DNA of 28,967 nucleotides from an uncultured Blautia sp. GTDB lineage: Bacteria > Bacillota > Clostridia > Lachnospirales > Lachnospiraceae. Under the pieces are notes generated by a model. That model searched no databases. It was not told the origin of the DNA and was given only the letters and a program-made list of their open reading frames with translations. How positions within the stretch are numbered: the first letter of the stretch is position 1; each line of letters starts with the position of its first letter. Of this stretch, positions 49 to 25,149 are shown piece by piece. The DNA lies in assembly GCA_900765525.1 (NCBI GenBank), contig CAAFRY010000145.1, positions 1 through 28,967 on the forward strand, written 5' to 3'. The position numbers and the translations under genes were made by a program.

Positions 49-80
49 TTACAAACTATATGATGAAAGAGGGAGACAAA

Positions 81-1169: not shown

Positions 1170-1230
1170 TATAATGCTGCCCTGAATCATAAAAGGGAAC
1201 GTTATACAAACAGGAAAACAGGAGGTTATT

Positions 1231-4244: not shown

Positions 4245-4269
4245 TATAAGGACGAGAAGGGGGTATTTT

Positions 4270-7669: not shown

Positions 7670-7679
7670 GGTGATAACT

Positions 7680-10643: not shown

Positions 10644-11024
10644 ATGAAAAAACAGATTTTTACACCGAAAGGAATGAAAGTTTTCGGCGGTCCTGTGGCA
10701 GAGGCTGTAATTTCGGGAGGTTTTGCCTTTATATCCGGACAGATTGCCCTCAATCCAGAAACAGGTGAGGTGATTCACGGGACCATTCAGGAGGAAACCC
10801 GCCAGGCCCTCAGCAATCTGAAGCTGATTATAGAGGAAATGGGAGCTTCTATGGAGGATGTGGTGAAGTGTGACGTTTTCCTGTCCACAATGGAGGATTT
10901 CGACGCTATGAATGTGATTTACGAAGAGTTTTTTGGCAATGAGTGTCCTCCGGCCAGGTCCGGTGTAGCCCTGGAGCTGTGGGGCGGAATGAAAATAGAA
11001 GTCAGTGCTATTGTAAAATTATAG
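10644..11024 (+). CDS. ridA: RidA (YjgF/YER057c/UK114) family enamine/imine deaminase
   Basis: This soluble trimeric enzyme family hydrolyses reactive 2-aminoacrylate-type enamines/imines to keto acids and ammonia. The 126 residues are the normal length. The catalytic arginine aligns at R105 in PPARSGV, and the GFAFISGQIALNPETGE start and C-terminal MKIEVSAIVKL strand are family signatures. GGGAGGA precedes the ATG. It is the first gene of the operon, 11 bases before MttB-like 1. Its presence suggests that an enzyme in the pathway (lyase or dehydratase) releases an unstable enamine or imine. A pathway-specific RidA paralogue is more likely than the housekeeping copy. Confidence 0.93.
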   Translation: MKKQIFTPKGMKVFGGPVAEAVISGGFAFISGQIALNPETGEVIHGTIQEETRQALSNLKLIIEEMGASMEDVVKCDVFLSTMEDFDAMNVIYEEFFGNECPPARSGVALELWGGMKIEVSAIVKL

Positions 11025-11035
11025 GAGGTGAAGGT

Positions 11036-12430
11036 ATGATTCTGAGACAGGTGAAGCGTCAGGAACTGGAAACCATTCATGAGAAAACCTTATATGTATT
11101 GGAGCATATAGGGGTGGATTTTGAACATCAGGAACTGTTGGAGCTGTTTAAAAAGCGTGGTATCAAGGTACAGGGAAACCGGGTGTTTTTCTCAGGGAAA
11201 GATGTAGAGGAAGGTCTTTCTACCTTACTGCCCAGCTTTGTCCTGAAGACTCCTTATGAGGAATTGAAGATTGGAGAAGGGGGACAGGCTATCTGCTCTG
11301 CTTCCGGTGCCAGAAAGATTTTAGAGAAGGGGCAGGTCCGGGACGCTTCCCCGGAGGATTATGTGAAAATAAGAAAGCTGGATGCTTCCAGTCCTATGAT
11401 AAATCTTACCAGCTCTCCATTGACCTATGTGCGGGATTTCCCTGGGGACAGAAGCGAGGTTATCAAAGGAGCCCTTTCTCTGAAATATTCCACTCATCCG
11501 GTAATCATGTCCTGCTTCGGAAAGAAGGACGCAGAGGAAACGATTCAGCTAGCCAGAGATTTTTATGATACGGACGAAGGCTATTATACTATTGGCGTAG
11601 GAAATGTGATTTCCCCTCTCCGCTATGCATGGGAGGATGTGGAGGCCCAGCTGGCCTACACCAAGAGAAATCTGCCGGTAGTCATTGCCTGCTGTTCTAT
11701 ACCAGGCATGACCAGCCCCATTACCTTAGGAGGAACCATTGTACAGAACAATGCGGAGGTTCTTGCAGGGGTTCTCATGACTCAGTTCGTCAATCCGGGG
11801 GCTCCGGTGGTTTACGGCAATACTACCTATGTGTCCAATATGAGAAAAGCCAGCCCTGTATCCTGGGGCTGTGAGGAGGCTGTATTTATCCAGTACGCCA
11901 AAGCTATGGCTGATTTCTACGGATTGCCCTGCCGTACCGGCGGTTCCCTTTCTATGGGCAAAGAGCTGGATTACCAAAACGGAGCGGAGACAGCCATGTC
12001 CCTGATGACAAGCCTGGATGTGGGTTCAGACTTTATTTTCCATTCCTTCGGTGAAATGGACGGATTAAATGTATTCAGTTTTGAGAAATATGTGCTGGAT
12101 GAGCAGATAATGGAGGCCAGAAAAGCGGCGGAGGCCATAGATATTTTCTCTTCAGAGGATATGAGCCTAGAATCCATGGAAGAAGAAGGGCCGGGAGGAA
12201 ATTATCTTCTGGAGGAAGAGACCATGGAGCTTTACCGGGAGGAAATCTATTATCCGGAGCTTTATAATATAGAAAACTATGATGAATGGCAGAGAAACGG
12301 AAGAATTTCTGTAGAGGAAAAAGCAGCAGAAAGAGTGAAGAAACGTCTGGAGGAATATCAGGCACCAGAGTATTCAGAGAGACAGAAACAGATACTAAAC
12401 CAGGCTCTGAAAGGCTTTGAGCATTTATAG
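11036..12430 (+). CDS. MttB-superfamily (trimethylamine methyltransferase-like) protein 1, non-pyrrolysine
   Basis: This 464-residue protein belongs to the MttB family, whose members move a methyl group from a quaternary or tertiary amine to a corrinoid protein (trimethylamine, glycine betaine, proline betaine, carnitine). The start IHEKTLYVLEHIGVDFEH and the core CCSIPGMTSPITLGGTIVQNNAEVLAG are characteristic. The frame contains no in-frame TAG, so it is a non-pyrrolysine type like MtgB and MtpB. The start at ATG 11036 follows GGAGGTGAAG. No corrinoid protein or MtgA/MtqA partner is encoded in the window, so the acceptor must lie elsewhere, or the function differs. It is closely similar to MttB-like 2 downstream, and the two probably arose by duplication. 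Confidence 0.88.
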   Translation: MILRQVKRQELETIHEKTLYVLEHIGVDFEHQELLELFKKRGIKVQGNRVFFSGKDVEEGLSTLLPSFVLKTPYEELKIGEGGQAICSASGARKILEKGQVRDASPEDYVKIRKLDASSPMINLTSSPLTYVRDFPGDRSEVIKGALSLKYSTHPVIMSCFGKKDAEETIQLARDFYDTDEGYYTIGVGNVISPLRYAWEDVEAQLAYTKRNLPVVIACCSIPGMTSPITLGGTIVQNNAEVLAGVLMTQFVNPGAPVVYGNTTYVSNMRKASPVSWGCEEAVFIQYAKAMADFYGLPCRTGGSLSMGKELDYQNGAETAMSLMTSLDVGSDFIFHSFGEMDGLNVFSFEKYVLDEQIMEARKAAEAIDIFSSEDMSLESMEEEGPGGNYLLEEETMELYREEIYYPELYNIENYDEWQRNGRISVEEKAAERVKKRLEEYQAPEYSERQKQILNQALKGFEHL

Positions 12431-12447
12431 AAAATAGAGGAGGGCTT

Positions 12448-14730
12448 ATGGCAAAAAAACTGAGATATGTGGGAAAATCCCTTTCCAATGCGGATGTATA
12501 CGGTAAGGTCACGGGAAGCCTGGAATATTGTAAGGATATGCAGGGGGGACAGACCCTTTATATGGCCCTGAAGCACTCGGATATTGCCCACGGCCTGATT
12601 CAGACCATTGACTGCGCTAAGGCCAAAGAGGTACCGGGCGTAGTGAAAATTTATACCTGGGAGAATACGCCGGACACACTATATGACAGAGGAAGAGTGG
12701 CCCATTACGAACAGATGCCTAATCAAGAAAGGCTTTTCGATGCTCATGTGCGGTTTTGGGGAGAGCGGGTAGCTGCTGTGGTAGCTGTAAGTCAGGAAGC
12801 GGCCTGCCGGGCTGTTGATTTGATTCAGGTGACTTACCAGACGCTTCCTGGGGCGATTACTGCGGATGAGGCGGAAGCTCCTCAGGCGCCGAAAATCCAT
12901 CCGGAGGGAAATGTTTATACTGCTCCTGTCCAGGACAGAGGAGATTATAGCTCACTGAAAGAGGGGGAAATATTTAAAACCTACACTCACATTGGCAGAA
13001 TGACCCATCTTTCCATGGAAACCAGCTGCACTCTGGCCCGTTATGATAAAGGGACAGGAAGACTTACGGTATATACCGGCTGTCAGACGGTTTTCGGTAT
13101 ACGCTCCACCCTTGCTGATTTTTTAGGGATGCCTTACAGCAAAGTGCGGGTGGTGAAAGCTCCCATGGGCGGTTCTTTTGGCTGTAAGCAGGAAACTCTT
13201 ACAGAGCCTTTGGCAGCTTATGCGGCCAGAGACCTGAAGGCAGAGGTACTCCTCTCCTATACCAGAGAGGAGCAGATTCAGAATACCATGCTGAAGCACA
13301 GCCTGGATGAATGGGTGGAATCCAGAATAACCAAAGAGGGAAAGCTTCTTGGGCTGTCTTTTAAAGCGAGGCTGGACAGTGGTGCCTATCAGACCGTATC
13401 CCCTTCCTACTGCAGGACCATAGGAGGCAAGCTGGGAAAGGTGTATAACATTCCTCATCTTCATTTCGAGGGAAAGGCTGTATGTACCAACACTCCGGTA
13501 AACGGAAGCTTTCGAAGCTGGGGCTCCTGTGAGGTGGCTATGGGATTAGAAACCCATATGAACCAAGCGGCGGAAAAGCTGGGCATAGACCCGGTGGAAT
13601 TCCGGTTGAGAAATGTGTTGGAGCCCTATGCTCCGGAGAAGATGCACCATACCCATGTGGGGAATGTTCATTTCCGGGAATGTCTGACAAAAGGTGCGGA
13701 AAAGTTTGACTGGACCAGGCGCAGACAGGAGTGTGAGAAGAGGAATAAGGCCGGCGGAAGATACCGGTACGGCAGCGGCATGGCCCTGTACTCCCACACC
13801 AGCTCCTTTTATCCCTACCAGACAGACGTGGCTACAGCCATTGCCAGACTGCAGGAGGACGGTACGGTTATCATCCATGTAGGTATTCACGACCACGGCT
13901 GCGGCACAGTTATGGCGATGAAAAAGATTGCTGCGGAAATTCTGGAAATTGATTTAGAAAAAGTGGAGGTATTTGAGGCAGATACCCAGGTTACTATGTA
14001 TGATTACGGCTGTTATGCCAGCCGTACTGTATATGTGCTGGGAAAAGCCGTGGAAGAGTGTACCAGAAGGCTTCTGGAGCTGGGGAGAAAAACAGCGGCC
14101 GCCATGTTTCAGTGTATGGAAAGCGCTGTGAAATACCAGGACGGAGAGTTCTATCTGGAAACAGAGCCTTCTAAACGAGGGGATTTAAGACAGGTATCGG
14201 AGTATGCCCTGTCTGTCCAGGGAAAGGATATATATCAGGTATGCACGGTAAATTCCCGGGAAAATCCAGGTACAGCGGCAGCTCATTTCACTATGGTCCG
14301 GGTAGATACCTATACCGGAGCCGTGAAGGTGCTGAACTGCCTGTCTGTTCATGACATCGGCAGAGCCATTAACCCGGATATGTGCATAGGCCAGGTGGGA
14401 AGCGGTATTCAGCAGGGAATGGGAATGGCTCTGTGTGAGGAAATTAAGATACATCCCCAGACAGGACAGACCCTTATTACCAATTTCAAAAACTATGAGG
14501 TAACCAATGCAGTGGATATGCCGGAATATGACGTATTATTCATAGAAGAACCAGAAGAGTACGGCCCCTTTGGAGCAAAGGCCATCGGTGAGGTTGTGGT
14601 GGTTCCTGTGGCTCCGGCTATTGTGGCAGCAGTAAACCAGGCCCTGGGAACGGAGATAGGAAGCGTTCCCATTACGAGAGAGATTATTTTGGAAGAACTG
14701 GAAAAGCAAGAAAGGAGCCGGAAATCATGA
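12448..14730 (+). CDS. Molybdenum hydroxylase, large (Mo-binding) subunit, xanthine dehydrogenase family
   Basis: This is the catalytic subunit (760 residues) of a three-part molybdopterin enzyme that hydroxylates electron-poor heterocycles or aldehydes with water-derived oxygen. Visible motifs: the N-terminal GKVTGSLEYCKDM, the GGSFGCKQE pterin-site loop, RSWGSCEVAMGLE, and the catalytic Glu at about residue 715 in GAKAIGEVVVVPVAPAI. The expected xanthine-binding residues cannot be confirmed by eye, so the substrate is open: purine, nicotinate-type ring, imidazole or thiohydantoin are all possible. The start follows GAGGAGG, 17 bases after MttB-like 1. The stop overlaps the 2Fe-2S subunit (ATGA), as is usual for these operons. 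Confidence 0.93.
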   Translation: MAKKLRYVGKSLSNADVYGKVTGSLEYCKDMQGGQTLYMALKHSDIAHGLIQTIDCAKAKEVPGVVKIYTWENTPDTLYDRGRVAHYEQMPNQERLFDAHVRFWGERVAAVVAVSQEAACRAVDLIQVTYQTLPGAITADEAEAPQAPKIHPEGNVYTAPVQDRGDYSSLKEGEIFKTYTHIGRMTHLSMETSCTLARYDKGTGRLTVYTGCQTVFGIRSTLADFLGMPYSKVRVVKAPMGGSFGCKQETLTEPLAAYAARDLKAEVLLSYTREEQIQNTMLKHSLDEWVESRITKEGKLLGLSFKARLDSGAYQTVSPSYCRTIGGKLGKVYNIPHLHFEGKAVCTNTPVNGSFRSWGSCEVAMGLETHMNQAAEKLGIDPVEFRLRNVLEPYAPEKMHHTHVGNVHFRECLTKGAEKFDWTRRRQECEKRNKAGGRYRYGSGMALYSHTSSFYPYQTDVATAIARLQEDGTVIIHVGIHDHGCGTVMAMKKIAAEILEIDLEKVEVFEADTQVTMYDYGCYASRTVYVLGKAVEECTRRLLELGRKTAAAMFQCMESAVKYQDGEFYLETEPSKRGDLRQVSEYALSVQGKDIYQVCTVNSRENPGTAAAHFTMVRVDTYTGAVKVLNCLSVHDIGRAINPDMCIGQVGSGIQQGMGMALCEEIKIHPQTGQTLITNFKNYEVTNAVDMPEYDVLFIEEPEEYGPFGAKAIGEVVVVPVAPAIVAAVNQALGTEIGSVPITREIILEELEKQERSRKS

Positions 14731-15185
14731 GAATATCTTTTCTGTTAAACGGACGGCCCATGGAGATGGAGGTACAGGGAGAGAGAAGGCTTTTGGATTT
14801 TCTGAGAGAAGATTTGCACCTGACCGGAACCAAGGAGGGCTGCGGAGAAGGGGAATGCGGAGCCTGTACGGTGATACTGGACGGAAAAGCGGTCCATGCC
14901 TGCCTGACTACTGTGGGAGAGCTGGACAACAGTCAGCTCCTTACCATTGAGGGATTGGAACAAAATGGAGAGCTGGACCGTCTGCAGAAGGCTTTTATCA
15001 AGAAAAGCGCCGTACAGTGCGGCTTTTGCACCAGCGGCATGATTATGTCTGCCAAGGCTCTTCTCATGGAAAATCCCCATCCTACCCAGGAGGAGATAAA
15101 GAGGGCTATTGCAGGGAATATCTGCAGGTGTTCCGGTTACAAGGAAATAAAGGCCGCCATAGCTTTGGCAGCAGAGGAGGAGTAG
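14727..15185 (+). CDS. Molybdenum hydroxylase, small [2Fe-2S] subunit
   Basis: This 152-residue electron-transfer subunit carries both [2Fe-2S] sites. The N-terminal plant-ferredoxin-type motif is CGEGECGACTV, followed by a fourth Cys in VHACL. The C-terminal helical site is QCGFCTSGM followed by CRCSGY. It passes electrons from the Mo site to the FAD subunit. Length and motif order match CoxS/XdhC-type small subunits. The ATG overlaps the stop of the large subunit, and AAGGAG lies 10 bases upstream. Very secure. Confidence 0.95.
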   Translation: MRISFLLNGRPMEMEVQGERRLLDFLREDLHLTGTKEGCGEGECGACTVILDGKAVHACLTTVGELDNSQLLTIEGLEQNGELDRLQKAFIKKSAVQCGFCTSGMIMSAKALLMENPHPTQEEIKRAIAGNICRCSGYKEIKAAIALAAEEE

Positions 15186-15188
15186 GGT

Positions 15189-16070
15189 ATGGAACAGGTA
15201 ATCTACAGCCAGCCCACAGATATGGATGGCCTGGCTAGGGCCTTGGGACAGGCCACAGAAAAGACTGTCCTTTTGGGAGGCGGTACGGACCTTCTGATTA
15301 TGATTCAAAAGAAACATCCGCCCATTGACCGGTATATCAGCCTGGGAAAAATCCCGGACCTGGGGAAAATAGAGGAGCAGGATGGATTCTTGAAAATCGG
15401 GGCAATGGCTACTCACCACCAGATTGCCGGGAATCCTCTGGTGGAGAAATATTTTCCTGCTCTGTCCATGGCCTGCAGCCATGTAGGTTCCCAGCAGATT
15501 CGAAACAAGGGGACCATAGGGGGCAGCCTGGCTAATGCTTCTCCTGCAGGAGATATGATGCCCTGTGTGTTTCTCTTTAAAGGAGAGATAGAAATCTATA
15601 ATAAAAACCAGGAATACCGGAGAATTTCAGGGGAGGAATTTTTAATTGGGAACCAGAGAACCGCTCTTTCCCTGGGAGAGGCGGTATCCGCCCTCTGGCT
15701 GCCCATCCGGGAGGAGAGAAAAAGCTGCTTTGTGAAGCTGGGAGCCAGAACCGACGTGACTATTGCACAGATTTCTCTGGCCCTTTCCTGGGAGAAAAAA
15801 GAAAATGCCATAGAAGCGGTGAGAGCTTATTTAGGTGCTGTGGACGTGCGGCCCCTGTATCTTCCGGAGGCAGAGGAGCTGTTATCCGGGGAAATAAGCC
15901 AGGAGAAAAAGGATGCTCTGGCAGAAAGCCTGAGAGCCAGGATACAGGGAATCCGGGAAAGAAGAAAACGGCAGCCCAAGCTTCGCATTACTGAGGCGGA
16001 GCGGCTGTATAAAGAAAGAGCAGTAAAAGGCATAGTTTATGATGCGGCAGAATATATGGAGGAACTATGA
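15189..16070 (+). CDS. Molybdenum hydroxylase, medium FAD-binding subunit
   Basis: This 293-residue CoxM-type FAD subunit takes electrons from the [2Fe-2S] subunit. FAD-binding motifs are LLGGGTDLLIMIQ (about 32-44) and TIGGSLANASPAGDMMP (about 113-129), followed by the CO dehydrogenase flavoprotein C-terminal domain. The flavin would pass electrons to NAD or, as in some anaerobes, to a ferredoxin; the two-cluster ferredoxin-like protein at 6698 is a possible partner. Three bases separate it from the small subunit, and the start overlaps its neighbour's upstream GGAGGAG site. It overlaps the lyase gene by 4 bases (ATGA), so all four genes are translationally coupled. Confidence 0.93.
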   Translation: MEQVIYSQPTDMDGLARALGQATEKTVLLGGGTDLLIMIQKKHPPIDRYISLGKIPDLGKIEEQDGFLKIGAMATHHQIAGNPLVEKYFPALSMACSHVGSQQIRNKGTIGGSLANASPAGDMMPCVFLFKGEIEIYNKNQEYRRISGEEFLIGNQRTALSLGEAVSALWLPIREERKSCFVKLGARTDVTIAQISLALSWEKKENAIEAVRAYLGAVDVRPLYLPEAEELLSGEISQEKKDALAESLRARIQGIRERRKRQPKLRITEAERLYKERAVKGIVYDAAEYMEEL

Positions 16071-17596
16071 AAAGCAGAGAGATTGAGAAAGTAATATTAG
16101 GAAAACCTTTAACCATCCAGGAATTTGTGGCAGTGGCCAGATTTCATGCCACTGTGGAATTCTCAGAGGAATATAAAAAAAGGGTAGAAAAATCCAGACA
16201 GATTATTGAGAAATGTGTGGAAGAGAAAAAAGTAGTGTACGGCACCACCACAGGCTTTGGCGCTCTGGTTACCAAAAATATTCCAAAAGACCAGGCAGAG
16301 AAGCTTCAGAGAAATATTATCATTACCCATTCTACCTCTGTGGGAGAATCTTTTGAGGAAGAGGTAGTAAGAGGCATTATACTGATGGTGCTGCAGAGCC
16401 TTGGGAAAGGGGTCAGCGGCGTCCGCCTGGAACTGCTGGAGTGCTATCGCCAGCTTCTGAATAAAAATTTGATTCCCTATGTGCCAAAAGAAGGTTCTGT
16501 AGGTTACCTCTGTGCAGAGGCTCATGTGGCAGCGGCTCTTCTGGGGGAAGGAAAAGCCTGGTATGAAGGGGTTCTCTATGACAGCAAAACCGCATTGGAG
16601 AAAGCAGGAATGGAGCCCTTTGTGCTAAGCTACAAGGAAGGCCTGGCTCTTACCAACGGAGTTTCATCTCCGGCAGCCATGGCGGCTTTGGCCGTATATG
16701 ATATGCGCAATGCCATAAGAAGCGCAGACGTGGTGGGAGCTATTTCCTTTGAAGCTTTGCAGGGACAGTTAAAGGCCTATGACGATAGGGTGCTGGCCTG
16801 CCGCCCCTTTAAGGAGATAAAGGAGACAGCAGATATTATGAAAGCTGTGCTGAAGGATTCCCAGGTGCTGGAGGCTGCTAAAGGAAACCATGTACAGGAC
16901 CCACTGTCTCTGCGGTGTATTCCCCAGCTTCACGGAGCCGTAAAGAAAACCCTGGAGGATGCCTGGGAAGCTGTGGAAATTGAGATTAACGGCTGTGGGG
17001 ACAACCCTATTGTCACAGGAGAGCCGGAGGACTTTGACGTATTTTCCAATGGAAATCCGGACAGCTCCTATATGGGTATTGAAATGGATTCCCTGTGCAT
17101 AGCGGCTACTGCAGCGGCGAAGATGTCAGAGCGTAGAAACGTGCGCTTCCTGGATGAAAAGCTGTCTTCTTATCCTTACTTTCTGGTGAAGAATCCGGGG
17201 CTTAACTCCGGACTGATGATTCCCCAGTATACCCAGGCAGGGCTTTTAAATGATATGAAAATCCTGTCCCATCCTGCTTCTGTGGACAGCATGACCACCA
17301 GCGCCAACCAGGAAGATTATGTGGCTATGGGATATAATGCCTGTAAGAAAGCCCTGGAATGTGTGAAAAAGCTGGAATACATATTGGCCATTGAATTGTT
17401 TTCCGCTTACCAGGCTCAGCAGTTTACCGATAAGGAGCTGAAGCGGGGGGAGGGAAGCCAGAAAGTGCTGGATTACCTGGCTGGAGTGATTCCTGTTATG
17501 GAGGAGGATATTTACATTCATCCTCATCTGGAAAAACTGCAGCAGGAAATACATAAAGAAAAAATTGTGGAGTGTGTGGAAAATGACGTGAAATAA
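16067..17596 (+). CDS. Histidine-ammonia-lyase homologue lacking the MIO triad; probable ergothionase-type trimethylammonia-lyase
   Basis: This 509-residue protein has the aromatic-amino-acid lyase fold. It retains Y58 in YGTTTGFG, LQRNIIITHSTSVGE (His88 matches HAL His83), LTNG, QDPLSLRC, and SANQED, whose Glu aligns with the imidazole-binding Glu414 of HAL. The cofactor site is changed: HAL has GSVG-Ala-Ser-Gly-Asp, whereas here GSVG is followed by Tyr147-Leu148-Cys149-Ala150, so no MIO can form. The active-site Tyr280 of HAL is Leu (QDPLSLR). MIO-free HAL relatives include ergothionase, which eliminates trimethylamine from ergothioneine by acid/base catalysis. The adjacent quaternary-amine transporter fits. 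Ergothioneine, hercynine or another betaine are candidates; the exact substrate is inferred, and an inactive homologue is the main alternative. Confidence 0.78.
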   Translation: MKSREIEKVILGKPLTIQEFVAVARFHATVEFSEEYKKRVEKSRQIIEKCVEEKKVVYGTTTGFGALVTKNIPKDQAEKLQRNIIITHSTSVGESFEEEVVRGIILMVLQSLGKGVSGVRLELLECYRQLLNKNLIPYVPKEGSVGYLCAEAHVAAALLGEGKAWYEGVLYDSKTALEKAGMEPFVLSYKEGLALTNGVSSPAAMAALAVYDMRNAIRSADVVGAISFEALQGQLKAYDDRVLACRPFKEIKETADIMKAVLKDSQVLEAAKGNHVQDPLSLRCIPQLHGAVKKTLEDAWEAVEIEINGCGDNPIVTGEPEDFDVFSNGNPDSSYMGIEMDSLCIAATAAAKMSERRNVRFLDEKLSSYPYFLVKNPGLNSGLMIPQYTQAGLLNDMKILSHPASVDSMTTSANQEDYVAMGYNACKKALECVKKLEYILAIELFSAYQAQQFTDKELKRGEGSQKVLDYLAGVIPVMEEDIYIHPHLEKLQQEIHKEKIVECVENDVK

Positions 17597-17610
17597 GAGA
17601 GGAGAAGTTT

Positions 17611-19218
17611 ATGGAAAAAGTAAAAATCAGAAAACCCGTATTTGTTACGATGTTGATTCTCTATGCAGTGATTATTATAGTGGGCCTGGTTTGGCCGGAA
17701 GCTTTTGCAGAAGCGGAGGGGCAGATTGTTAATTTTGCAGCCTCCTGGTTTGGATGGCTCTATGATTTGACTGCCCTTATCATGCTGGGCATCTGTATAT
17801 GGGTCATGTTTTCAAAGAAAGTAGGAAAGATTCGGCTGGGAGGAGAAAATGCCAAGCCGATTATGAGCCGGTGGAACTGGTTCGTTATTTCCCTGTGCGG
17901 CGGTATTGCCACTGGTATTGTATTCTGGGGTATTGCAGAGCCTATTACACACTTCATGTCCCCCATACCCGGCTATGGATATGAGGCGGAGACTGCCCAG
18001 GGAGCTCTGTACGCTTTAAGTACCTGCTACCTTCACTGGGGTCCTGTACTCTATGCCTTCTATGCAGTGGCAGGAATCGGTATCGGCGTGGCTGTGTATA
18101 ACCTGAAGCTTCCTTACAGGGTGTGTTCCTGTCTGTATCCTATTTTAGGGAAGCGGGCCATGGGCGCTATAGGAACCGTAGTGGACATTCTCTGTCTCTT
18201 TGGTCTGGCCGGCGGCGTTTCTTCGTCCCTTGGAGTTTCCGCCATGCAGCTTGGAGCAGGACTGGGTATTATCACAAATGTGAATCCAACTAACTTTATG
18301 TGGGCGGTTATTCTGATTACCATAGTTATCACCTTTATTATTTCCAGTTACACAGGTATCGGACGTGGAGTGCGGTTCCTGTCAGATAAAAATGCCAAGA
18401 TTTATATTGGACTTATGGTATTTGTGCTTATCTTCGGTCCTACCAAATATATCCTGAATATGACCACAGAGGCTTTTGGCTTCCATTTGGACAACTTCTT
18501 CATGCAGTCCACTTATCTGGACACTTTTGAAGGCGGCATGTGGCCTACCTGGTGGACCATTAACTACTGGAGCTTTATGATTGCCTATACACCTCTTATT
18601 GGAATGTTTCTGGCGAAAATTGCCAGAGGAAGAACCCTGAAAGAGTTTACCCTTTTTAATTTCCTGCTTCCGGGAGGTTTTGGGATTTTGTGGTTCGGTA
18701 TTTTTGGTTCTTCTTCCATCAATATCCAGGAAACAGCAGGGGGTATCTGGGAATCCATGAATGAGCTGGGAACAGAGTCGGCGGTATTCGCCTTTTTTGA
18801 ACACTTCCCTCTGTCCACAGTGATGAGTATACTGTTTATGATTACCGCCTTTTTGTCTGTGGTAACCCTGGCGGACTCTATGACCACCACCATTTCTTCC
18901 CTTTCTATTAAAGCGAAAAATGCGGCTACTGTAGAGCCTCCGGCAAAAGTTAAGATTTTCTGGGGAATCGTTATGTCTCTGCTGGCTTTTATCAATATTG
19001 TGACAGCCAGCAATGTAGGGAAGGTAAGTGGAATCGATGCAACAAAGCAGCTTGCAATCGTCAGCGCTTTTCCTTTATTGTTTGTCATTGTGGTGATGAA
19101 CTACAGCACAGTAAAGATGCTGATACAGTATAAAAAATACGGTACCGCCGATTACCCGGAGGAATCTGTGGTAGAAAAAGAGCTGCAGGTGGACCATGAG
19201 GAGGAAGGAACGTCATGA
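17611..19218 (+). CDS. BCCT-family betaine/quaternary amine transporter
   Basis: This 535-residue carrier with about 12 membrane helices belongs to the betaine/carnitine/choline transporter family. Family features include the C-G-G-I-A-T-G-I start of TM3 (about residue 95-102), YLHWGPVLYAFYA in TM4 and GMFLAKIARGRTLKEF after TM8. The aromatic box that cages trimethylammonium groups is altered: where BetP has Trp-Trp-x2-Trp in TM8, this protein reads W320-S-F322-M323-I-A-Y326. W143 and Y151 of the TM4 part are kept. No long osmosensing C-terminal tail is visible, favouring a nutrient-uptake or exchanger role. It follows the lyase by 14 bases and overlaps the aconitase X gene (ATGA). Confidence 0.92.
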   Translation: MEKVKIRKPVFVTMLILYAVIIIVGLVWPEAFAEAEGQIVNFAASWFGWLYDLTALIMLGICIWVMFSKKVGKIRLGGENAKPIMSRWNWFVISLCGGIATGIVFWGIAEPITHFMSPIPGYGYEAETAQGALYALSTCYLHWGPVLYAFYAVAGIGIGVAVYNLKLPYRVCSCLYPILGKRAMGAIGTVVDILCLFGLAGGVSSSLGVSAMQLGAGLGIITNVNPTNFMWAVILITIVITFIISSYTGIGRGVRFLSDKNAKIYIGLMVFVLIFGPTKYILNMTTEAFGFHLDNFFMQSTYLDTFEGGMWPTWWTINYWSFMIAYTPLIGMFLAKIARGRTLKEFTLFNFLLPGGFGILWFGIFGSSSINIQETAGGIWESMNELGTESAVFAFFEHFPLSTVMSILFMITAFLSVVTLADSMTTTISSLSIKAKNAATVEPPAKVKIFWGIVMSLLAFINIVTASNVGKVSGIDATKQLAIVSAFPLLFVIVVMNYSTVKMLIQYKKYGTADYPEESVVEKELQVDHEEEGTS

Positions 19219-20522
19219 TTTGGCTTAGTCAGGAAGAGCAGGATATGTTAGAGGGCAGGCAGGGAAGACTGAAGCAGACAGCCATGGAAAATATCCTCCG
19301 TTACGCCCGGGTTCTGGGAGCGGAAGAACTTTGCAGAGTTACCAAAGCAACGGTGTTCTGCGGTGCCCACAATTATCTGGATGTATGTAAAAGCCAGGAT
19401 TTCCATGAGGTTTTCAGCAAAATGAACCTGGCCAGGGACGAAAGGATTCCTTTTGATTGTGTGGACAAAGGGTGCTATGTCCAGTCCTGTGTAGCGGCCA
19501 GCGACCAGTTCGAATATGAAGTTTTCGACCAGCCTAAAGAGGTTTTTGATAAGAACAGCTATTACCTGGAGGAGGCCAGAAAAGCAGGGGTAATCATTGC
19601 AGGCTCCTGTTCCCCTTACCTTATGGGCTGGCTCCCTGTCAGGGGAGAGCATTTTGTTACCACAGAATCCGGAGTGACCATTATGGGAAATTCTCTGTGG
19701 GGAGCCTGCTGCAATGCGGACGGAATAGAAGCTGCCTTTTGGTCGGCTATCTGCGGAAGGACCCCTAAATGGGGATACCATGTAAAAGAGAACCGGTACG
19801 GCACTCATTTATTCCACATAAAGGCACATCTCCATACGGTTTTGGATTGGGAGGTTCTGGGAAAGGCCATGGGAAAAAGGCTGCCTCTTACAGGCTGTAC
19901 TCCGGTGATTGCCGGGGATTTCCAGGGAGCGGATTTTGTGAAGCTGAAAAGCTTTTTTACCTCTTTGGCTATTACCACGAACTGCAGAATGTGCCATATT
20001 GTAGGCATTACTCCTGAGGCTAATACGGTGGAGGAAGCTTTCATGGGACATGAGATACAGGGAGAAGAAACACTTTACGATGAGGATATTGCCAGGGCTT
20101 ATGAGAAGTTATGCGAGGAAAAGGAAGGCTCTGTGGATTTGGTAAGCCTGGGCTGTCCCCATTATGACATCCACCAGATACAGGAGGTGGCGGAATATAT
20201 CAAGGGTAAGAAGGTTCATGAAGGAACCAGATTCATGGTCTGGACCGTATATCCGGTAAAAGCCATGGCAGATTTAAACGGCTACACCCAGATAATCCAG
20301 GAAGCAGGAGGCAGTATCCAGACCAGCACCTGCCCTGTTACCATTGGAGAGTGCTTTTTAAAGCATTATCCCGGCCAGGTCTATGACAGCCTGAAGCAGT
20401 CGGGCAGCGTCCGTTCTGACGGTTCGGCGGAAAGAGTATATTATACCGACAAGTTCCGCTGTATTGACGCAGCCATATCCGGCTGCTGGAAGGAGGAATA
20501 CAGGTGGAAAAAAGAATTCTGA
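19215..20522 (+). CDS. Aconitase X large (catalytic) subunit, copy 1, divergent
   Basis: This 435-residue homologue of the AcnX catalytic domain (DUF521) belongs to an iron-sulfur dehydratase family that includes cis-3-hydroxy-L-proline dehydratase and archaeal mevalonate-5-phosphate dehydratase. The N-terminal LSQEEQDMLEG and the GCPHYDIHQI motif are family hallmarks. Compared with copy 2, the substrate loop differs: GARSNREG of copy 2 is GACCNADG here, and FSESSATPY is TTESGVTIM. An insertion near residues 75-105 adds several Cys (CVDKGCYVQSC). The substrate is therefore probably different from copy 2. GAGGAAGGA precedes the ATG. The matching small subunit overlaps its 3' end. Confidence 0.88.
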   Translation: MIWLSQEEQDMLEGRQGRLKQTAMENILRYARVLGAEELCRVTKATVFCGAHNYLDVCKSQDFHEVFSKMNLARDERIPFDCVDKGCYVQSCVAASDQFEYEVFDQPKEVFDKNSYYLEEARKAGVIIAGSCSPYLMGWLPVRGEHFVTTESGVTIMGNSLWGACCNADGIEAAFWSAICGRTPKWGYHVKENRYGTHLFHIKAHLHTVLDWEVLGKAMGKRLPLTGCTPVIAGDFQGADFVKLKSFFTSLAITTNCRMCHIVGITPEANTVEEAFMGHEIQGEETLYDEDIARAYEKLCEEKEGSVDLVSLGCPHYDIHQIQEVAEYIKGKKVHEGTRFMVWTVYPVKAMADLNGYTQIIQEAGGSIQTSTCPVTIGECFLKHYPGQVYDSLKQSGSVRSDGSAERVYYTDKFRCIDAAISGCWKEEYRWKKEF

Positions 20523-20926
20523 AAGGCAGAGGTGTGATTCCGGGCATTGTGGAAGGGACGGCTATTGTTTGTCCCGGCAGCATTACCGGCTGGGGAGGAA
20601 TTGACCCTTCTACAGGTGTCATCAAGGATTACGAAAACGAAAACAAAGGAAAAACCATTAAGGACAGTATTCTCATTATGCCGGGAAGCAAAGGCTCCAA
20701 CGGCTGGTCCTGCTATTTTGGAGCAGCCAGAGCTGCCGGGTGCGCTCCCAGAGGGTGGGCTTTTTCAAAAATTGACAGCAGTGCAGGGGTTGCCAGCGCT
20801 GTTATGCAGATTCCCACAGTGGTAGATTTTTCCAGGGAGGAAGACCCCTGTCTGTGTATAAAAACAGGGGATTATGTGAGATTGGACGGGGAAAAGGGAA
20901 CCCTGGAAATTCTTCACAGGCCATAG
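20504..20926 (+). CDS. Aconitase X small (swivel) subunit, copy 1
   Basis: This 140-residue protein corresponds to the aconitase X swivel domain (DUF126), the separately encoded small subunit of type II AcnX enzymes. Family features include the GRGVIPGIVEGTAIV start, WGGIDPSTGVIKD and the phosphate/serine loop region GSKGSNGWSCYF, which in most members reads closer to GxGSSSGS. The start is a GTG at 20504 with GGAGGA 7 bases upstream, 19 bases inside the large-subunit gene. The unusual loop matches the divergence of its large subunit, as expected for a co-evolving pair. Confidence 0.88.
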   Translation: MEKRILKGRGVIPGIVEGTAIVCPGSITGWGGIDPSTGVIKDYENENKGKTIKDSILIMPGSKGSNGWSCYFGAARAAGCAPRGWAFSKIDSSAGVASAVMQIPTVVDFSREEDPCLCIKTGDYVRLDGEKGTLEILHRP

Positions 20927-20953
20927 GAGATAATAGGAAAGGAAGGACTTGCA

Positions 20954-22342
20954 ATGATTGTAAAGGAGATACAGGATTGGGAGATACAGATGATTCATGA
21001 GAAATCTCTGGAAATATTAGAAGAGGTAGGCGTGAATTTTGAACATGAGGAAATTCTGGAATTCTTTCGCAAAAGCGGTGTAAAGACGGAGGGCTGCAGA
21101 GTATTTTTTACTCCACAGCAGGTAGAGGCACAGCTGGAGAACCTGCAGGAGTCCTTTGTTATAGAAACGCCTTTTGCAAGTCTGAAAATCGGCGGGGGAA
21201 GCAGGGCTGTGGCCACTGCTTCCGGAGCTATGACAATCCTGAAGGAGGGAAAGATTGTAACTCCTTCGGTGGAGGATTATATTGACCTGAAAAAAATGGA
21301 CGATATGAGTCCTTTTGTCAATCTGGGCTGCGTGCCCGGTATTTACGCCGCAGGACTGCCGGAGGGAGAGACAGAGCTGGTGAAAACAGCTCTCAGTCTC
21401 CGCTATTCCAAGAAGCCTCTTATCGCCTCCTGTGAGACCGGCAGAAGCGCTGCCCAGTCCATTAGATTTATCAAAGAATTTTACGGAGATACAGGGGCTT
21501 ACTATACCCTGGGGATTGAAAACATTATATCTCCTCTCCGCTATTGCCGGGAGGACGTAGCTGCCACCTTGGCCTATGTCCGGCAGAATCAGCCGGTATG
21601 TATCACCTGTTGTTCTGCCCCGGGCATGTCCAGCCCTATTACTGTGGGAGGGACGGTGGTACAAAATAACGCAGAAATTCTGGCGGGCATAGTCATGACT
21701 CAGATGGTAAATCCGGGAGTGCCGGTGATATACGGAAATGTTACTTACAGCTCGGATTTAAGAAAGGCAGTGCCTATTTCCTGGGGACCGGAGGTAGCTA
21801 TATTTATGCAGTATGCAAAGGCTATGGCAGATTATTACCGGATGCCCTGCCGGGTGGGGGGCTCTCTTTCCGGCGCTAAGCAGCTGGACTGGCAGGACGG
21901 TGCAGAGACGGCAGTATCTATGATGACTACTTTGGATTGCCATACGGATTTGATGTTTCATGCCTTTGGAGAGCTGGACTGCCTGAATGTATTCAGTCTG
22001 GAAAAATATCTGCTGGATGAGGAGATTTTGGAGGCCAGGCTTTCCGTGGAGAAAAAAGAATATATTACAGAAGAAAATATACAGATGGACATGATAAAGC
22101 GGGTAGGTCCCAGAGGAACCTATATGCTGGAGGACGAGACACTGGAGCTGTACCGGACGGAGCTGTTCCATCCCCGCCTGTTTAACTGTGAGAATTACCA
22201 TGACTGGCAGCAGCAAGGGATGACCTCCGTGGTACATAAGGCCCACGGGGCCGTGGAGGAACGGCTGGCGGCATATGAAGCTCCGGTTTACGATACCAGG
22301 AGAAACCAGATGCTGGAGGATGTACTTTCTGTATTAGGCTGA
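20954..22342 (+). CDS. MttB-superfamily (trimethylamine methyltransferase-like) protein 2, non-pyrrolysine
   Basis: This 462-residue paralogue of MttB-like 1 shares its landmarks: IHEKSLEILEEVGVNFEHEE at the start, CCSAPGMSSPITVGGTVVQNNAEILAG in the core, and YRMPCRVGGSLSGAKQLDWQDGAE, with conserved VNPG-PVIYGNVTYSSD. No in-frame TAG is present, so it is not a pyrrolysine enzyme. The pair may handle successive demethylations or two related amines. AAGGAAGG lies before the ATG, 27 bases after the swivel subunit. As for copy 1, no corrinoid protein is encoded nearby, which leaves the methyl acceptor unidentified. Confidence 0.88.
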   Translation: MIVKEIQDWEIQMIHEKSLEILEEVGVNFEHEEILEFFRKSGVKTEGCRVFFTPQQVEAQLENLQESFVIETPFASLKIGGGSRAVATASGAMTILKEGKIVTPSVEDYIDLKKMDDMSPFVNLGCVPGIYAAGLPEGETELVKTALSLRYSKKPLIASCETGRSAAQSIRFIKEFYGDTGAYYTLGIENIISPLRYCREDVAATLAYVRQNQPVCITCCSAPGMSSPITVGGTVVQNNAEILAGIVMTQMVNPGVPVIYGNVTYSSDLRKAVPISWGPEVAIFMQYAKAMADYYRMPCRVGGSLSGAKQLDWQDGAETAVSMMTTLDCHTDLMFHAFGELDCLNVFSLEKYLLDEEILEARLSVEKKEYITEENIQMDMIKRVGPRGTYMLEDETLELYRTELFHPRLFNCENYHDWQQQGMTSVVHKAHGAVEERLAAYEAPVYDTRRNQMLEDVLSVLG

Positions 22343-22356
22343 AAGGAAGGAAAAAT

Positions 22357-23385
22357 ATGGGGACGGTAGTAAAAACAGAAGAAATCAAAACTTTAATGAG
22401 ACAGGCCCTGGCTCTGCGTGGGGTAACAGGAGAATATGCGGAGTTTATTATTGCAGATTATGTGGAATCGGAGACAGAGGGGCATAAAACCCACGGGCTG
22501 TCTAAATTTTTAACCATAGATATTGGGCTTTCCAAGCGCCAGGGGGATTTAAAATTAGTAAAGCAGAAGGGCTGCTATGCCATGGTGGACGGAAACCGGG
22601 AGCTGGGACATATCGGGGCCCTGTATGCGGTTAATCTGGCCATTGACCTGGCAAAGAAAAACGGCGTGGGAATTGTGGCACTGAAGAATGTAAGCCGGTA
22701 TTCCAGAATTACACCATACGGAAGAAAAATAGGGCAGGAAGGCCTTATCGGGATTATCACCAATAACGGAGGACCGGGATGTGTAGCTCCCTTTGGGGGA
22801 AAACAGGGACTGTTCGGAACAAATCCTCTGTGCTTTGCTTTTCCTTCAAAAGGAAAACAGCCCTATGTCTTTGATTTTGCTACTGCTCAGAAGGTTTGGG
22901 GAGAGGTGAGACAGGCTATTGTAGAGCAGAGGCCTTTAGCCAGAGATTCTTTTCTGGATAAGGACGGAAATTTCACCACAGACCCGGAGGCCGTTCAGTG
23001 CGGAATACCTTTTGGCGGGCCAAAGGGCTACGCTCTGTGCTATGGGCTGGAGCTTATGACAGGGGCCTTTATGGGAGCAAAAATGGGAAATAAAGCAGAA
23101 GATGAATATGATTTGGGCTATCTTTTCACCGCACTTTCCCCTGACATGTTTACGGATTTGGAAAGCTTTCAGGAGGAGGCAGATGAGATGGCCCGGGCCG
23201 TGAGAAATTGTCCTCCTATAAAAGAAGGGGGAAAGGTTTTTGTGCCGGGGGAAATTTTCGCAGGAAAAGCAGTCAGTGAGATTCCTCAGGACAGCCTTGA
23301 AGTGGAAGACCAGGTATATGAAAGATTAAAAATCATGAGCGTTTCCCTGAAGGGCGGCTATGAAAATAGTAAAAAAATGAACTGA
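22357..23385 (+). CDS. Ldh2-family NAD(P)-dependent 2-hydroxyacid / cyclic-imine reductase
   Basis: This 342-residue member of the Ldh2/malate-lactate dehydrogenase family includes malate, ureidoglycolate and sulfolactate dehydrogenases and the delta1-pyrroline-2-carboxylate/piperideine reductases. Landmarks: ESETEGHKTHGLSKF (about 38-52), NNGGPGCVAPFGGKQGLFGTNPLCFAFP (about 145-172), and FGGPKGYALCYGLELMTG (about 223-241). Where most family members carry the catalytic His (SxHFGxAGYY), this one reads V-S-R114-Y-S-R-I-T-P-Y-G, so the usual acid/base His is Arg. Several pyrroline-carboxylate reductases pair with AcnX hydroxyproline dehydratases, which makes imine reduction attractive here. AAGGAAGG precedes the ATG, 15 bases after MttB-like 2. 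Confidence 0.88.
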   Translation: MGTVVKTEEIKTLMRQALALRGVTGEYAEFIIADYVESETEGHKTHGLSKFLTIDIGLSKRQGDLKLVKQKGCYAMVDGNRELGHIGALYAVNLAIDLAKKNGVGIVALKNVSRYSRITPYGRKIGQEGLIGIITNNGGPGCVAPFGGKQGLFGTNPLCFAFPSKGKQPYVFDFATAQKVWGEVRQAIVEQRPLARDSFLDKDGNFTTDPEAVQCGIPFGGPKGYALCYGLELMTGAFMGAKMGNKAEDEYDLGYLFTALSPDMFTDLESFQEEADEMARAVRNCPPIKEGGKVFVPGEIFAGKAVSEIPQDSLEVEDQVYERLKIMSVSLKGGYENSKKMN

Positions 23386-23403
23386 CGGACGGATACAGAA
23401 ACC

Positions 23404-23498
23404 GTCGGAACTAATATAGAATCAATATAGAACCACTATAGAACCACTATAGAACCAAAATGGATTCGGCATAGAACTGACATAGAAAAGAATTGACA
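23404..23498 (+). promoter_or_regulatory. 11-bp direct-repeat array with in-phase TTGACA (candidate SARP operator/promoter)
   Basis: Eight consecutive 11-base units run from 23404 to 23491. Those beginning at 23415, 23426, 23437 and 23448 start TATAGAA, those at 23470 and 23481 start CATAGAA, and those at 23404 and 23459 are degenerate. The next register (23492) contains TTGACA at 23493-23498. This is the only long gap (150 bases) inside the operon, just before the second aconitase X pair. I see no good -10 at the expected spacing. Period and phase match SARP-type binding sites. Confidence 0.75.
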
Positions 23499-23535
23499 GA
23501 ATCCCCGGCATATGGGGAGAAAAGGAGAAGGTACA

Positions 23536-24744
23536 ATGAAATTAACACAGGAACAGCAGGACATGCTGGAGGGAAAATATGGAAAGGGAACTGCCTATGC
23601 CATGAAAATACAGGTAGCCATAGGAGAATCCTTTGACGCAGAACGGATGGTTCCCATTACCAGGGCCCATGTGGCTTTATCAAACCAGGAGGCAGATTTG
23701 TGGTTTTGCGAAAAGCTGTTAAGGGAAGGAGCCAGGTGCAGAGTGACGCCTACGGTAAATCCCGGATTCTGCCTGGACTTTTTTAAGCAAAGAGATATGG
23801 TTGCCCCAGAATTTGCAGACCTGATGCAGAGAACTCACAATGCCTACAAGGCTATCGGCGCTCAGCTAAGTTATAACTGCACCCCTTATATTGACACCAA
23901 TGTTCCTCATTATGGAGAGGTTATTGCTTTTTCCGAGTCCAGCGCTACCCCCTATGTCAATGCAGTTTGGGGTGCAAGGAGCAACCGGGAGGGAGCCAAC
24001 AGCGCACTGTGCGCTGCCATCACAGGCTATGTGCCGGAATATGGACTGCTTCTGGAGGAGAACCGGAAGGGAGATATTCTGGTGGAAGTAAAGGCAGATG
24101 TAAAGACGCCCTATGATTACCATATTATTGGAATGTTGGGAAAGAAAATCGGGGAAGGGATTCCTGTATTCACCGGCTTCCCAAAGGAAACCATCACAAA
24201 AGAGGGCCTGAGAAATCTGGGAGCAGAGCTGAATACTTCCGGGGCTTACGGCATGTATCACATTGAAGGCTTTACACCGGAAGCACCGGATTTGAAAACC
24301 GCCTTTGGGGGAAAGGAACCGAAACGGACAGTGGTTCTCACCAATGAGGACAAAGAGCAGATACTAGAAGAAATCTCCCTGAGCGGCGGCAGAAAGATTG
24401 ATTTTGCCATGTTCGGATGTCCTCATTTTACTCTGGAGGAGGTAAAATATATTGCTTCTAAGCTGGATGGAAAGAAGCTGGAAAAGGAAATGTGGATTTT
24501 GGTGTCCAGCCATGTAAAAGAGATGGCAGTGCGTATGGGGCTGGATGATATAATTACCCGGGCGGGAGGATTTATTGTCCCGGATTCTTGTCCTGACCAG
24601 CCCTGCTGGAGGCATCTTGCAGGAAAGACCGGAATTACAGAATCGCCTAAATGTGCCTACTATCCACAGCGAAGGGGGATTCATTTCGTTATCCGGGATT
24701 TAGATACATGTATAGAAGCAGCGCTTACAGGGGAGGTAAAGTAA
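23536..24744 (+). CDS. Aconitase X large (catalytic) subunit, copy 2
   Basis: This 402-residue AcnX catalytic subunit is close to the family consensus. Motifs: LTQEQQDMLEGKYG at the start, YNCTPYIDTNVPHYGEVIAFSESSATPYVNAVWGARSNREG (about 120-160), GCPHFTLEEV (about 294-303) and a C-terminal Cys pair in SCPDQPCW. Members of this family remove water from cis-3-hydroxyproline or hydroxy acids, using an iron-sulfur cluster held by Cys. Conserved substrate-loop residues suggest this copy is active. I chose ATG 23536, not 23512, because AAGGAGAAGG lies directly upstream. It follows the 11-bp repeat array and is likely transcribed separately from, or more strongly than, the rest. Confidence 0.9.
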   Translation: MKLTQEQQDMLEGKYGKGTAYAMKIQVAIGESFDAERMVPITRAHVALSNQEADLWFCEKLLREGARCRVTPTVNPGFCLDFFKQRDMVAPEFADLMQRTHNAYKAIGAQLSYNCTPYIDTNVPHYGEVIAFSESSATPYVNAVWGARSNREGANSALCAAITGYVPEYGLLLEENRKGDILVEVKADVKTPYDYHIIGMLGKKIGEGIPVFTGFPKETITKEGLRNLGAELNTSGAYGMYHIEGFTPEAPDLKTAFGGKEPKRTVVLTNEDKEQILEEISLSGGRKIDFAMFGCPHFTLEEVKYIASKLDGKKLEKEMWILVSSHVKEMAVRMGLDDIITRAGGFIVPDSCPDQPCWRHLAGKTGITESPKCAYYPQRRGIHFVIRDLDTCIEAALTGEVK

Positions 24745-25149
24745 ATGGGCAGACGATTTCAATGCCACAAAATATCAGAGGGCTGTGCGGAGGCAGAAGC
24801 CCTGGTTTCCAAAGACCACATTATGTTTTATCTCATCGAGCCTAAGACAGGGACTGTAATTGAGAAGGCTCATGATTTAGAAGGAAAAACCGTAGCCGGC
24901 AAGGCTCTGGTCTTTCCCGGGGGAAAGGGCAGCTCCGTTGTCCAGGCCGACGGCCTGTACCAGTTGAAAATCCAGGGAAACATGCCTGCGGCCATGATTA
25001 TCCAGCATCCGGAAACGGTTCTGGTATCCAGCGCCATTATCATGGAGATTCCCATGGTGGATAAGGTAGAGCCGGAATTTTATGAGATATTAAAAGAAGG
25101 AGACAGAATCCTGGTGAATGCGGACCAGGGTTTTGTAGAAATATTATAG
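24745..25149 (+). CDS. Aconitase X small (swivel) subunit, copy 2
   Basis: This 134-residue DUF126/swivel-domain protein begins immediately after the large-subunit stop codon with GGGAGG upstream. The FPGGKGSSVVQADGLYQL loop corresponds to the serine/glycine phosphate-type loop of AcnX small subunits, and MPAAMIIQHPETVLVSSAIIMEIPMVD matches the C-terminal half of the domain. It pairs with copy 2 to form the complete type II enzyme. It closes the operon; the terminator hairpin begins 22 bases later. Confidence 0.88.
   Translation: MGRRFQCHKISEGCAEAEALVSKDHIMFYLIEPKTGTVIEKAHDLEGKTVAGKALVFPGGKGSSVVQADGLYQLKIQGNMPAAMIIQHPETVLVSSAIIMEIPMVDKVEPEFYEILKEGDRILVNADQGFVEIL

What the first reader, a model, noticed from the sequence alone, without database searches (positions are those of the whole stretch)
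10644..25149. Thirteen-gene operon that may be an undescribed quaternary-amine catabolic pathway
Seen: RidA, two MttB-like proteins, a three-subunit Mo hydroxylase, a MIO-less lyase, a BCCT carrier, two aconitase X pairs and an Ldh2 reductase are packed on one strand, with overlaps or gaps under 30 bases except for one 150-base gap. Known: BCCT carriers and MttB proteins act on quaternary amines; AcnX and Ldh2 enzymes act together in hydroxyproline breakdown. I know of no described pathway with this set. Inference: import of a betaine, release or demethylation of its amine, ring hydroxylation, hydration/dehydration and imine reduction.
Basis: inference. Interest (0 to 1): 0.82.

Follow-up and report, generated by a model that had tools for sequence, protein, structure and literature searches.

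The report
Gut-bacterial histidine-betaine breakdown operon (proposed)
A block of genes in a gut-type bacterium looks like an undescribed route that strips trimethylamine from histidine-type betaines (relatives of the food compound ergothioneine) and then processes the remaining acid, which would matter because trimethylamine affects human health.

Summary
The 13 genes are real, on one strand, with the stated spacing. The set is not chance: all 13 have relatives in one uncultured Lachnospiraceae genome (G002, four contigs), and 9 of 13 form one cluster in each of G641, G645, G646. XdhABC and BCCT are variable; upstream SSS, DUF, ferredoxin and BTAD genes belong to the set. The key gene is a HAL-fold lyase without the MIO triad, in its own well-supported clade apart from ergothionase. 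Such lyases have a BCCT carrier nearby in 19 of 33 loci, ordinary HAL in 0 of 25, and stand beside HutU-HutI-HutG in four Bacillus-type loci. AcnX2 keeps catalytic residues but not the hydroxyproline or phosphomevalonate determinants; an AcnX2S-like domain is fused to ergothionase-type lyase in 4 of 120 listed proteins. Against this, 9 other genomes with AcnX2 relatives had no lyase nearby. Best reading: import, trimethylamine elimination from an imidazole betaine, AcnX hydration, NAD hydroxyacid dehydrogenase. Roles of MttB1/2, AcnX1, RidA and XdhABC are open; no substrate is proven.

The parts
4240..5988 (+). SSS-family sodium:solute symporter, part of the conserved set
   Evidence: SSS name by reading, no family search was run on it; relatives 80-86% in the clusters of G595, G641 (half the gene), G645, G646; also near lyase in L008, L013, L018, L022, L028, L033
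5990..6526 (+). Protein of unknown family (called DUF6k here) next to SSS
   Evidence: no Pfam/NCBIfam hit; conserved 39-65% in five related loci; AF2 model pLDDT 79, no PDB match with E <= 0.001
6698..7669 (+). Ferredoxin-like 4Fe-4S protein
   Evidence: Fer4 domains; 68-83% in the clusters of G595, G641, G645, G646
7671..10544 (+). BTAD/AAA/TPR transcriptional regulator, likely regulator
   Evidence: Pfam BTAD, AAA_16; 47-51% relatives next to RidA in G595, G641, G645, G646
10644..11024 (+). RidA
   Evidence: PF01042; 84-87% in G595, G640, G641, G645, G646; 68% in G002
11036..12430 (+). MttB1, non-pyrrolysine MttB-superfamily protein
   Evidence: PF06253; 74-84% in G595, G641, G645, G646, G002; start read from the sequence
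12448..14730 (+). XdhA-type Mo-binding subunit
   Evidence: MoCoBD_1/2; GE motif kept; 56-62% relatives near lyases in L003, L013 and beside BCCT in G002
14727..15185 (+). XdhC-type 2Fe-2S subunit
   Evidence: Fer2, Fer2_2
15189..16070 (+). XdhB-type FAD subunit
   Evidence: FAD_binding_5
16067..17596 (+). MIO-less HAL-fold lyase, subfamily a (proposed trimethylamine-lyase)
   Evidence: PF00221; MIO triad absent; clade a 100/100
17611..19218 (+). BCCT carrier
   Evidence: PF02028; 80% relative beside XdhABC in G002; 66% relative after XdhABC and two lyases in L003
19215..20522 (+). AcnX1 large subunit
   Evidence: PF04412; three cluster Cys, Glu, Ser, Lys kept, Asn79 and Tyr365 equivalents lost
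20504..20926 (+). AcnX1 small subunit
   Evidence: PF01989
20954..22342 (+). MttB2, sister paralogue of MttB1
   Evidence: PF06253; tree and lost Asp
22357..23385 (+). Ldh2-family NAD(P) hydroxyacid dehydrogenase
   Evidence: PF02615; 67-72% in six genomes
23536..24744 (+). AcnX2 large subunit
   Evidence: PF04412; 87-89% in six genomes; shared catalytic residues kept, substrate loop shortened
24745..25149 (+). AcnX2 small (swivel) subunit
   Evidence: PF01989; 51-55% identical to the swivel domain fused to ergothionase-type lyases P0122, P0157, P0168, P0199

Best explanation
An operon for anaerobic breakdown of a histidine-type (imidazole) betaine of the hercynine/ergothioneine class in a Blautia-like Lachnospiraceae. 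SSS and/or BCCT import the betaine. The MIO-less lyase removes trimethylamine; a quaternary nitrogen can leave without MIO. The resulting imidazolyl-acrylate is hydrated by AcnX2 to a hydroxy acid, which Ldh2 oxidises (or makes, in reverse) as an NAD-linked hydroxyacid dehydrogenase. XdhABC hydroxylates or desulfurises the imidazole ring. MttB1/2, AcnX1 and RidA handle N-methylated or enamine intermediates. Shown: gene identity, conservation, MIO loss, AcnX residues, the AcnX-lyase fusion in relatives. Inferred: substrate, order of steps, all chemistry after the lyase.
For: The lyase lacks the MIO triad and keeps His and Glu at the HAL His83 and Glu414 positions (their ring-binding role is recalled). 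BCCT near MIO-less lyases 19/33 vs 0/25. In L006, L011, L019, L023 the sister lyase b stands with BCCT and HutU, HutI, HutG-like genes, in L030 without BCCT; the HutU sampled (L019) scores 984 bits as hutU and 700 as thiourocanate hydratase. Ergothionase-type lyases sit in such clusters too (L008, L012 by PDB match; L206, L223 by blastp). AcnX2S-like domain fused to ergothionase-type lyase in 4 of 120 listed proteins. AcnX2 keeps the shared hydroxyacid-binding residues but no amine or phosphate ligand. Hydroxyacid dehydrogenases recur: Ldh2 here, a 2-hydroxyacid dehydrogenase in L033, a 3-hydroxyacyl-CoA-dehydrogenase-like protein beside the ergothionase type in L012.
Against: No HutU/HutI in the window. 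AcnX2 is not lyase-bound: around AcnX2L relatives in 9 other class genomes (two at 71-72%, the rest 33-47%) no lyase-family gene was found. MttB1, MttB2 and AcnX1, which are well conserved, have no firm role here. Lyase a stands beside another MIO-less lyase (b, c or e) in most related genomes; the window shows only a. Known AcnX enzymes act on beta-hydroxy acids, Ldh2 on alpha-hydroxy acids (recalled), so direct coupling is uncertain. The fusions join the AcnX domain to the ergothionase type, not to subfamily a. The BCCT control is confounded by taxon: the MIO-less loci are mostly Firmicutes, the MIO loci mostly other phyla.
Confidence: 0.4

Rival explanations
1. A variant of known ergothioneine degradation: the lyase is a divergent ergothionase, XdhABC removes the sulfur, and the rest is accessory.
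For: Mo hydroxylase genes lie with ergothionase-type lyase and BCCT in L206 and L223, and with lyase b in L012/L013. PMC13405746 (passages) cites reports of ergothionase in C. symbiosum and of a gut thiourocanate desulfhydrase.
Against: The lyase scores 336 bits to a HAL and 189 to ergothionase 6s7j. The window-type XdhA is only 34-35% identical to the two ergothionase-linked ones. No ergothioneine pathway that I know of has AcnX or MttB.
Confidence: 0.2
2. Hydroxylated proline betaine pathway: MttB demethylates, AcnX dehydrates, RidA/Ldh2 deal with the pyrroline.
For: AcnX1-type genes stand with MttB, BCCT and RidA without lyase in L111/L113, and with BCCT, MttB and a corrinoid protein in L180.
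Against: AcnX1 and AcnX2 lack the Asp203 equivalent. The lyase is then an unexplained core gene. No proline racemase family gene appears in the Pfam scans of 20 window ORFs.
Confidence: 0.1
3. The MttB/AcnX1/lyase a module and the AcnX2/Ldh2/RidA module are two separate pathways that share regulation and transporters.
For: G595 and G640 split them: SSS-Fdx-MttB1-lyase a-AcnX1-MttB2 and RidA-AcnX2-Ldh2-lyase e (SSS, Fdx and MttB1 seen in G595 only). AcnX2 relatives also occur without lyase.
Against: They form one cluster in G641, G645, G646 and the window.
Confidence: 0.2

Closest known systems
Ergothionase (PDB 6s7j, Treponema denticola)
   Same: HAL fold without MIO; trimethylamine as leaving group (inferred here); ergothionase-type genes occur in clusters of relatives of this operon
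   Different: Window lyase is closer to HAL (336 vs 189 bits) and lies in a separate 100/100 clade; a shared MIO loss is not rejected (AU p 0.447)
Histidine utilisation (Hut) pathway
   Same: HAL-like ring positions kept; sister lyases stand beside HutU-HutI-HutG in Bacillus-type genomes
   Different: No MIO; betaine carriers, AcnX and a hydroxyacid dehydrogenase in the operon instead of HutU/HutI
Aconitase X (cis-3-hydroxyproline dehydratase; mevalonate 5-phosphate dehydratase)
   Same: Family match, three cluster cysteines and shared hydroxyacid-binding residues in AcnX2
   Different: Neither substrate-specific determinant present
MttB-superfamily demethylases (MtgB and others)
   Same: Full-length family match; Leu at the Pyl position of MttB2, as in MtgB
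   Different: No corrinoid gene beside MttB1/2; an Asp kept in 17 of 18 other MttBs is lost

Membership tests
Histidine ammonia-lyase | Ala-Ser-Gly triad forming MIO | tested here: not met
   GSVGYLCAEAH in the window; aligned to MIO of HAL; 120 of 120 listed homologues MIO-less
Ergothionase | absence of MIO in a HAL-family protein | tested here: met
Ergothionase | closest to characterised ergothionase by sequence/tree | tested here: not met
   336 bits to HAL 7tqr, 189 to 6s7j; own clade
Ergothionase | releases trimethylamine from ergothioneine | not testable with these tools
   needs an enzyme assay
Aconitase X, C3LHyp dehydratase | Asp203 amine ligand (with Thr72) | tested here: not met
   Asp absent at the aligned loop of AcnX1 and AcnX2; small-subunit motifs KGSSVV and KGSNGW lack the Thr by reading
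Aconitase X, MVA5P dehydratase | Gly48-Val49-Ser50 phosphate loop | tested here: not met
   loop shortened in AcnX2, different in AcnX1
Aconitase X (family) | three cluster Cys plus Glu129, Ser130, Lys361 | tested here: met
   both large subunits
MttB-superfamily demethylase | cognate corrinoid protein gene nearby | tested here: not met
   none among the operon genes nor in the clusters of relatives; G595, G640, G641, G645, G646, G002 hold PF02607 elsewhere. Some other MttBs also showed no corrinoid gene nearby, so this is weak
MttB-superfamily demethylase | pyrrolysine (TMA type) | tested here: not met
   Leu at the Pyl position of MttB2, of MttB1 by reading; no in-frame stop in either ORF
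Mo hydroxylase (xanthine dehydrogenase family) | three subunits with Mo, 2Fe-2S and FAD domains and the active-site Glu motif | tested here: met
Hut pathway | HutU and HutI with the lyase | tested here: not met
   absent among the 20 window ORFs scanned; on the lyase contig in G002, about 8-9 kb beyond the second lyase in G641 and G646

The most novel reading that the evidence does not exclude
A CoA-independent route for trimethylamine-lyase products: MIO-less lyase, then an aconitase X acting as a hydratase of imidazolyl-acrylates (a new AcnX activity), then a hydroxyacid dehydrogenase, with two MttB paralogues repurposed away from corrinoid chemistry, present in Blautia-like gut bacteria.
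Probability: 0.25. Interest if true: 0.82.

Novelty: new variant of a known kind. Interest (0 to 1): 0.66.

Why it matters
It points to a wide family of probable trimethylamine-lyases distinct from ergothionase: 15 of 20 genomes of one genus-level group, which includes a Blautia isolate, hold at least one. A 2026 paper judged ergothionase rare in gut bacteria from a BLAST with one query, while warning that divergent homologues were not covered (PMC13405746, passages). If these lyases act on dietary histidine betaines, that picture changes. It also offers an assayable function for aconitase X subclasses that the structure paper leaves without a known activity (PMC8184944, passages).

Tried and rejected
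Whole-genome search of the window's own assembly: none held. Rfam and tRNA scans: nothing. Promoter and terminator scans: counts equal to shuffles (19 vs mean 18.9; 17 vs mean 15.9). DUF6k structure: no PDB match with E <= 0.001. In the 33 vs 25 locus comparison only BCCT, the sigma-54 regulator and SSS (p 0.032) were significant; Xdh p 0.63, AcnX p 0.13, MttB p 1, HutU p 0.41 were not; 22 of the 80 loci fitted neither lyase pattern and were dropped. AcnX2 as a lyase-only partner was rejected: 0 of 9 other genomes with AcnX2L relatives, of 11 such genomes besides G595, showed a lyase nearby (G1001 and G1020 were not fetched). Literature: MttB with aconitase X gave one paper, listing only; hercynine, trimethylamine, lyase, urocanate together gave none; thiourocanate with ergothioneine and bacteria gave one; ergothionase or thiourocanic gave 24, listing only but for PMC13405746; hercynine, trimethylamine, gut bacteria gave two. 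Zhou 2025 and Feng 2025 are not held, so I could not see which C. symbiosum protein was assayed; a subfamily-b-like C. symbiosum protein exists (P0057), and none of the names shown among the 120 listed ergothionase-type proteins is C. symbiosum (most carry no name). XdhABC as a metallopterin ergothioneine synthase was dropped: that enzyme is related to acetylene hydratase and DMSO reductase (PMC9516567, part 1 of 6 and passages).
Full report
Observation. The ORF list and family searches confirm the thirteen genes at the stated place. Gaps are 27 bases or less, with several overlaps, except 150 bases before AcnX2L. The MttB1 ORF listed from 10943 most likely starts at 11036.

Is the set conserved? 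Yes. In G002, the genome of an uncultured Lachnospiraceae (locus L002), all 13 genes have relatives on four contigs: lyase 65%, AcnX2 88/76, AcnX1 70/74 on one, which also carries HutU-HutI-FtcD; RidA 68, MttB2 56, Ldh2 69 on another; XdhA 62, XdhC 78, XdhB 56, BCCT 80 on a third; MttB1 74 alone on a fourth. In G641, G645 and G646 one cluster reads Fdx-BTAD-RidA-MttB1-SSS-DUF-lyase a-AcnX2-AcnX1-MttB2-Ldh2-lyase e, without XdhABC and BCCT (DUF in G645). G595 has SSS-DUF-Fdx-MttB1-lyase-AcnX1-MttB2 at the same chromosomal site as the window: the four genes upstream are 77-96% identical and PlsY and glycosyltransferase genes follow, with one extra gene between. Its BTAD-RidA-AcnX2-Ldh2-lyase e block lies elsewhere. 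G640 shows parts of the same two blocks on short contigs, and no MttB1 orthologue was found in it. So the conserved unit starts upstream of the given finding, and XdhABC and BCCT are variable parts.

How common? In the genus-level group of G595, 15 of 20 genomes have a MIO-less lyase (motif seen): 5 of the AcnX-cluster type, 7 with lyases b and a in tandem (BCCT seen before them in 6; one contig starts at lyase b), 3 with BCCT and lyase b only. In 299 family genomes 4 passed the strict lyase cut-off; in 392 order genomes 6 passed for AcnX1L; in 391 class genomes 12 passed for AcnX2L.

The lyase. Its best solved relatives are histidine ammonia-lyases (336 bits); ergothionase 6s7j scores 189. 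The MIO triad is missing. In a tree of 44 rows (14 of 44 extracted MIO lyases plus two more were used) the MIO-less subfamilies a, b, c, e form one branch (100/100), the window lyase lies in a (100/100), and the two ergothionase-type rows are a long separate branch; holding all MIO-less rows together is not rejected (AU p 0.447). His and Glu at the HAL His83 and Glu414 positions are kept in the MIO-less rows printed; in one row (L003_17062) the Asp after the Glu is Ser. That these residues hold the imidazole is recalled knowledge. BCCT genes lie near MIO-less lyases in 19 of 33 loci and near MIO lyases in 0 of 25 (p 1.5e-6); HutU is near 10 of 33 and 11 of 25, so the MIO-less lyases are about as Hut-linked as true HAL. 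The two groups differ in taxonomy, so this control is imperfect. In Bacillus-type genomes the order is BCCT-lyase b-HutU-HutI-HutG in L019 and L023; in L006 an AraC-type gene lies between, in L011 the Hut genes lie upstream; Acinetobacter L030 has HutU, HutI, HutG and lyase without BCCT. The HutG model score sampled was just under its cut-off (222 vs 229).

Ergothionase link. Ergothionase-type genes (525 and 546 bits to 6s7j) stand next to lyase b in L008 and L012. By blastp to the L008 protein (41-43%), L206 holds BCCT-lyase b-XdhCBA-ergothionase type and L223 (G646) XdhCBA-ergothionase type-BCCT, then BTAD and HutU. Their Mo subunits are 34-35% identical to the window's; the window type recurs in L003, L013, G002 and, without a lyase nearby, in G641 and G645. 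Two Mo hydroxylase lineages thus join these clusters; ring hydroxylation or desulfurisation is inference.

Aconitase X. AcnX2L keeps the three cluster cysteines and the equivalents of Asn79, Glu129, Ser130, Ser131, Lys361 and Tyr365 of the T. kodakarensis enzyme, but the loop that holds Asp203 (hydroxyproline amine) or Gly48-Ser50 (phosphate) is shortened (residue roles from PMC8184944, passages and one section). AcnX1L keeps the cysteines, Glu, Ser and Lys and lacks Asn79; Tyr365 is lost in the three lyase-cluster rows printed and kept in three rows from clusters without lyase. Four of the 120 listed ergothionase-type proteins are AcnX-swivel plus lyase fusions, 51-55% identical to the window's AcnX2S; L008 has AcnX2L and AcnX2S just before the ergothionase type. 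This is the strongest link between the two enzymes. Against it, the surroundings of AcnX2L relatives in 9 other class genomes hold no lyase-family gene; in G971 (71% identity) they are TRAP transporter and 2-hydroxyacid dehydrogenase genes. That pairing agrees with an AcnX/hydroxyacid dehydrogenase couple but shows that AcnX2 is not tied to the lyase.

MttB. MttB1 and MttB2 are sister paralogues (53-56% identity of MttB1 to MttB2 orthologues; joint clade 1.000). An Asp two residues after the Pyl position, kept in 17 of 18 other MttBs that I grouped as comparison, is replaced in all 12 orthologues. Several other MttBs of these genomes lie beside corrinoid genes (L180, L181, L184, L187); others showed none against my reference set (for example L183, L188, L189). 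So a missing neighbour alone is weak evidence, and corrinoid proteins exist elsewhere in these genomes.

Verdict. The finding is real, and in what I could search the gene combination is not described. Betaine type, trimethylamine release and AcnX-lyase coupling are well motivated but unproven; the roles of MttB1/2, AcnX1, RidA and XdhABC are open.

Noticed in passing
window 60-4184: PucR-, FtsE-, FtsX- and C-terminal-protease-like genes (names by reading) precede SSS; G595 has the same four at 77-96% identity, so the operon sits at a shared chromosomal site.
   Followed up: yes
L223 6494-13382: XdhCBA, ergothionase-type lyase and BCCT near BTAD and HutU in G646: a candidate ergothioneine cluster, separate from the window-type cluster in that genome.
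   Followed up: partly
MIO-less lyase loci such as L001, L005, L021, L033, L160, L162, L163, L167-L169: A sigma-54 regulator resembling PrdR lies near the lyase: 14 of 33 MIO-less loci against 0 of 25 MIO loci.
   Followed up: partly
L196 6378-17433: Three MttB genes with two BCCT and two proline racemase family genes in a deltaproteobacterium, perhaps a proline-betaine cluster.
   Followed up: no
L180 3-6929: BCCT, AcnX1-type pair, PocR regulator, corrinoid protein and MttB together: AcnX with a corrinoid demethylation system.
   Followed up: no
L239 8277-13821; L248: AcnX pairs with TRAP transporter and 2-hydroxyacid dehydrogenase genes, no lyase.
   Followed up: partly
L166 4895-8640: FeFe-hydrogenase-like and NuoF-like genes directly after lyase e in G595.
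   Followed up: no
window 27970-28905: DUF1848 protein after a hexapeptide acetyltransferase gene, apparently unrelated to the operon.
   Followed up: no
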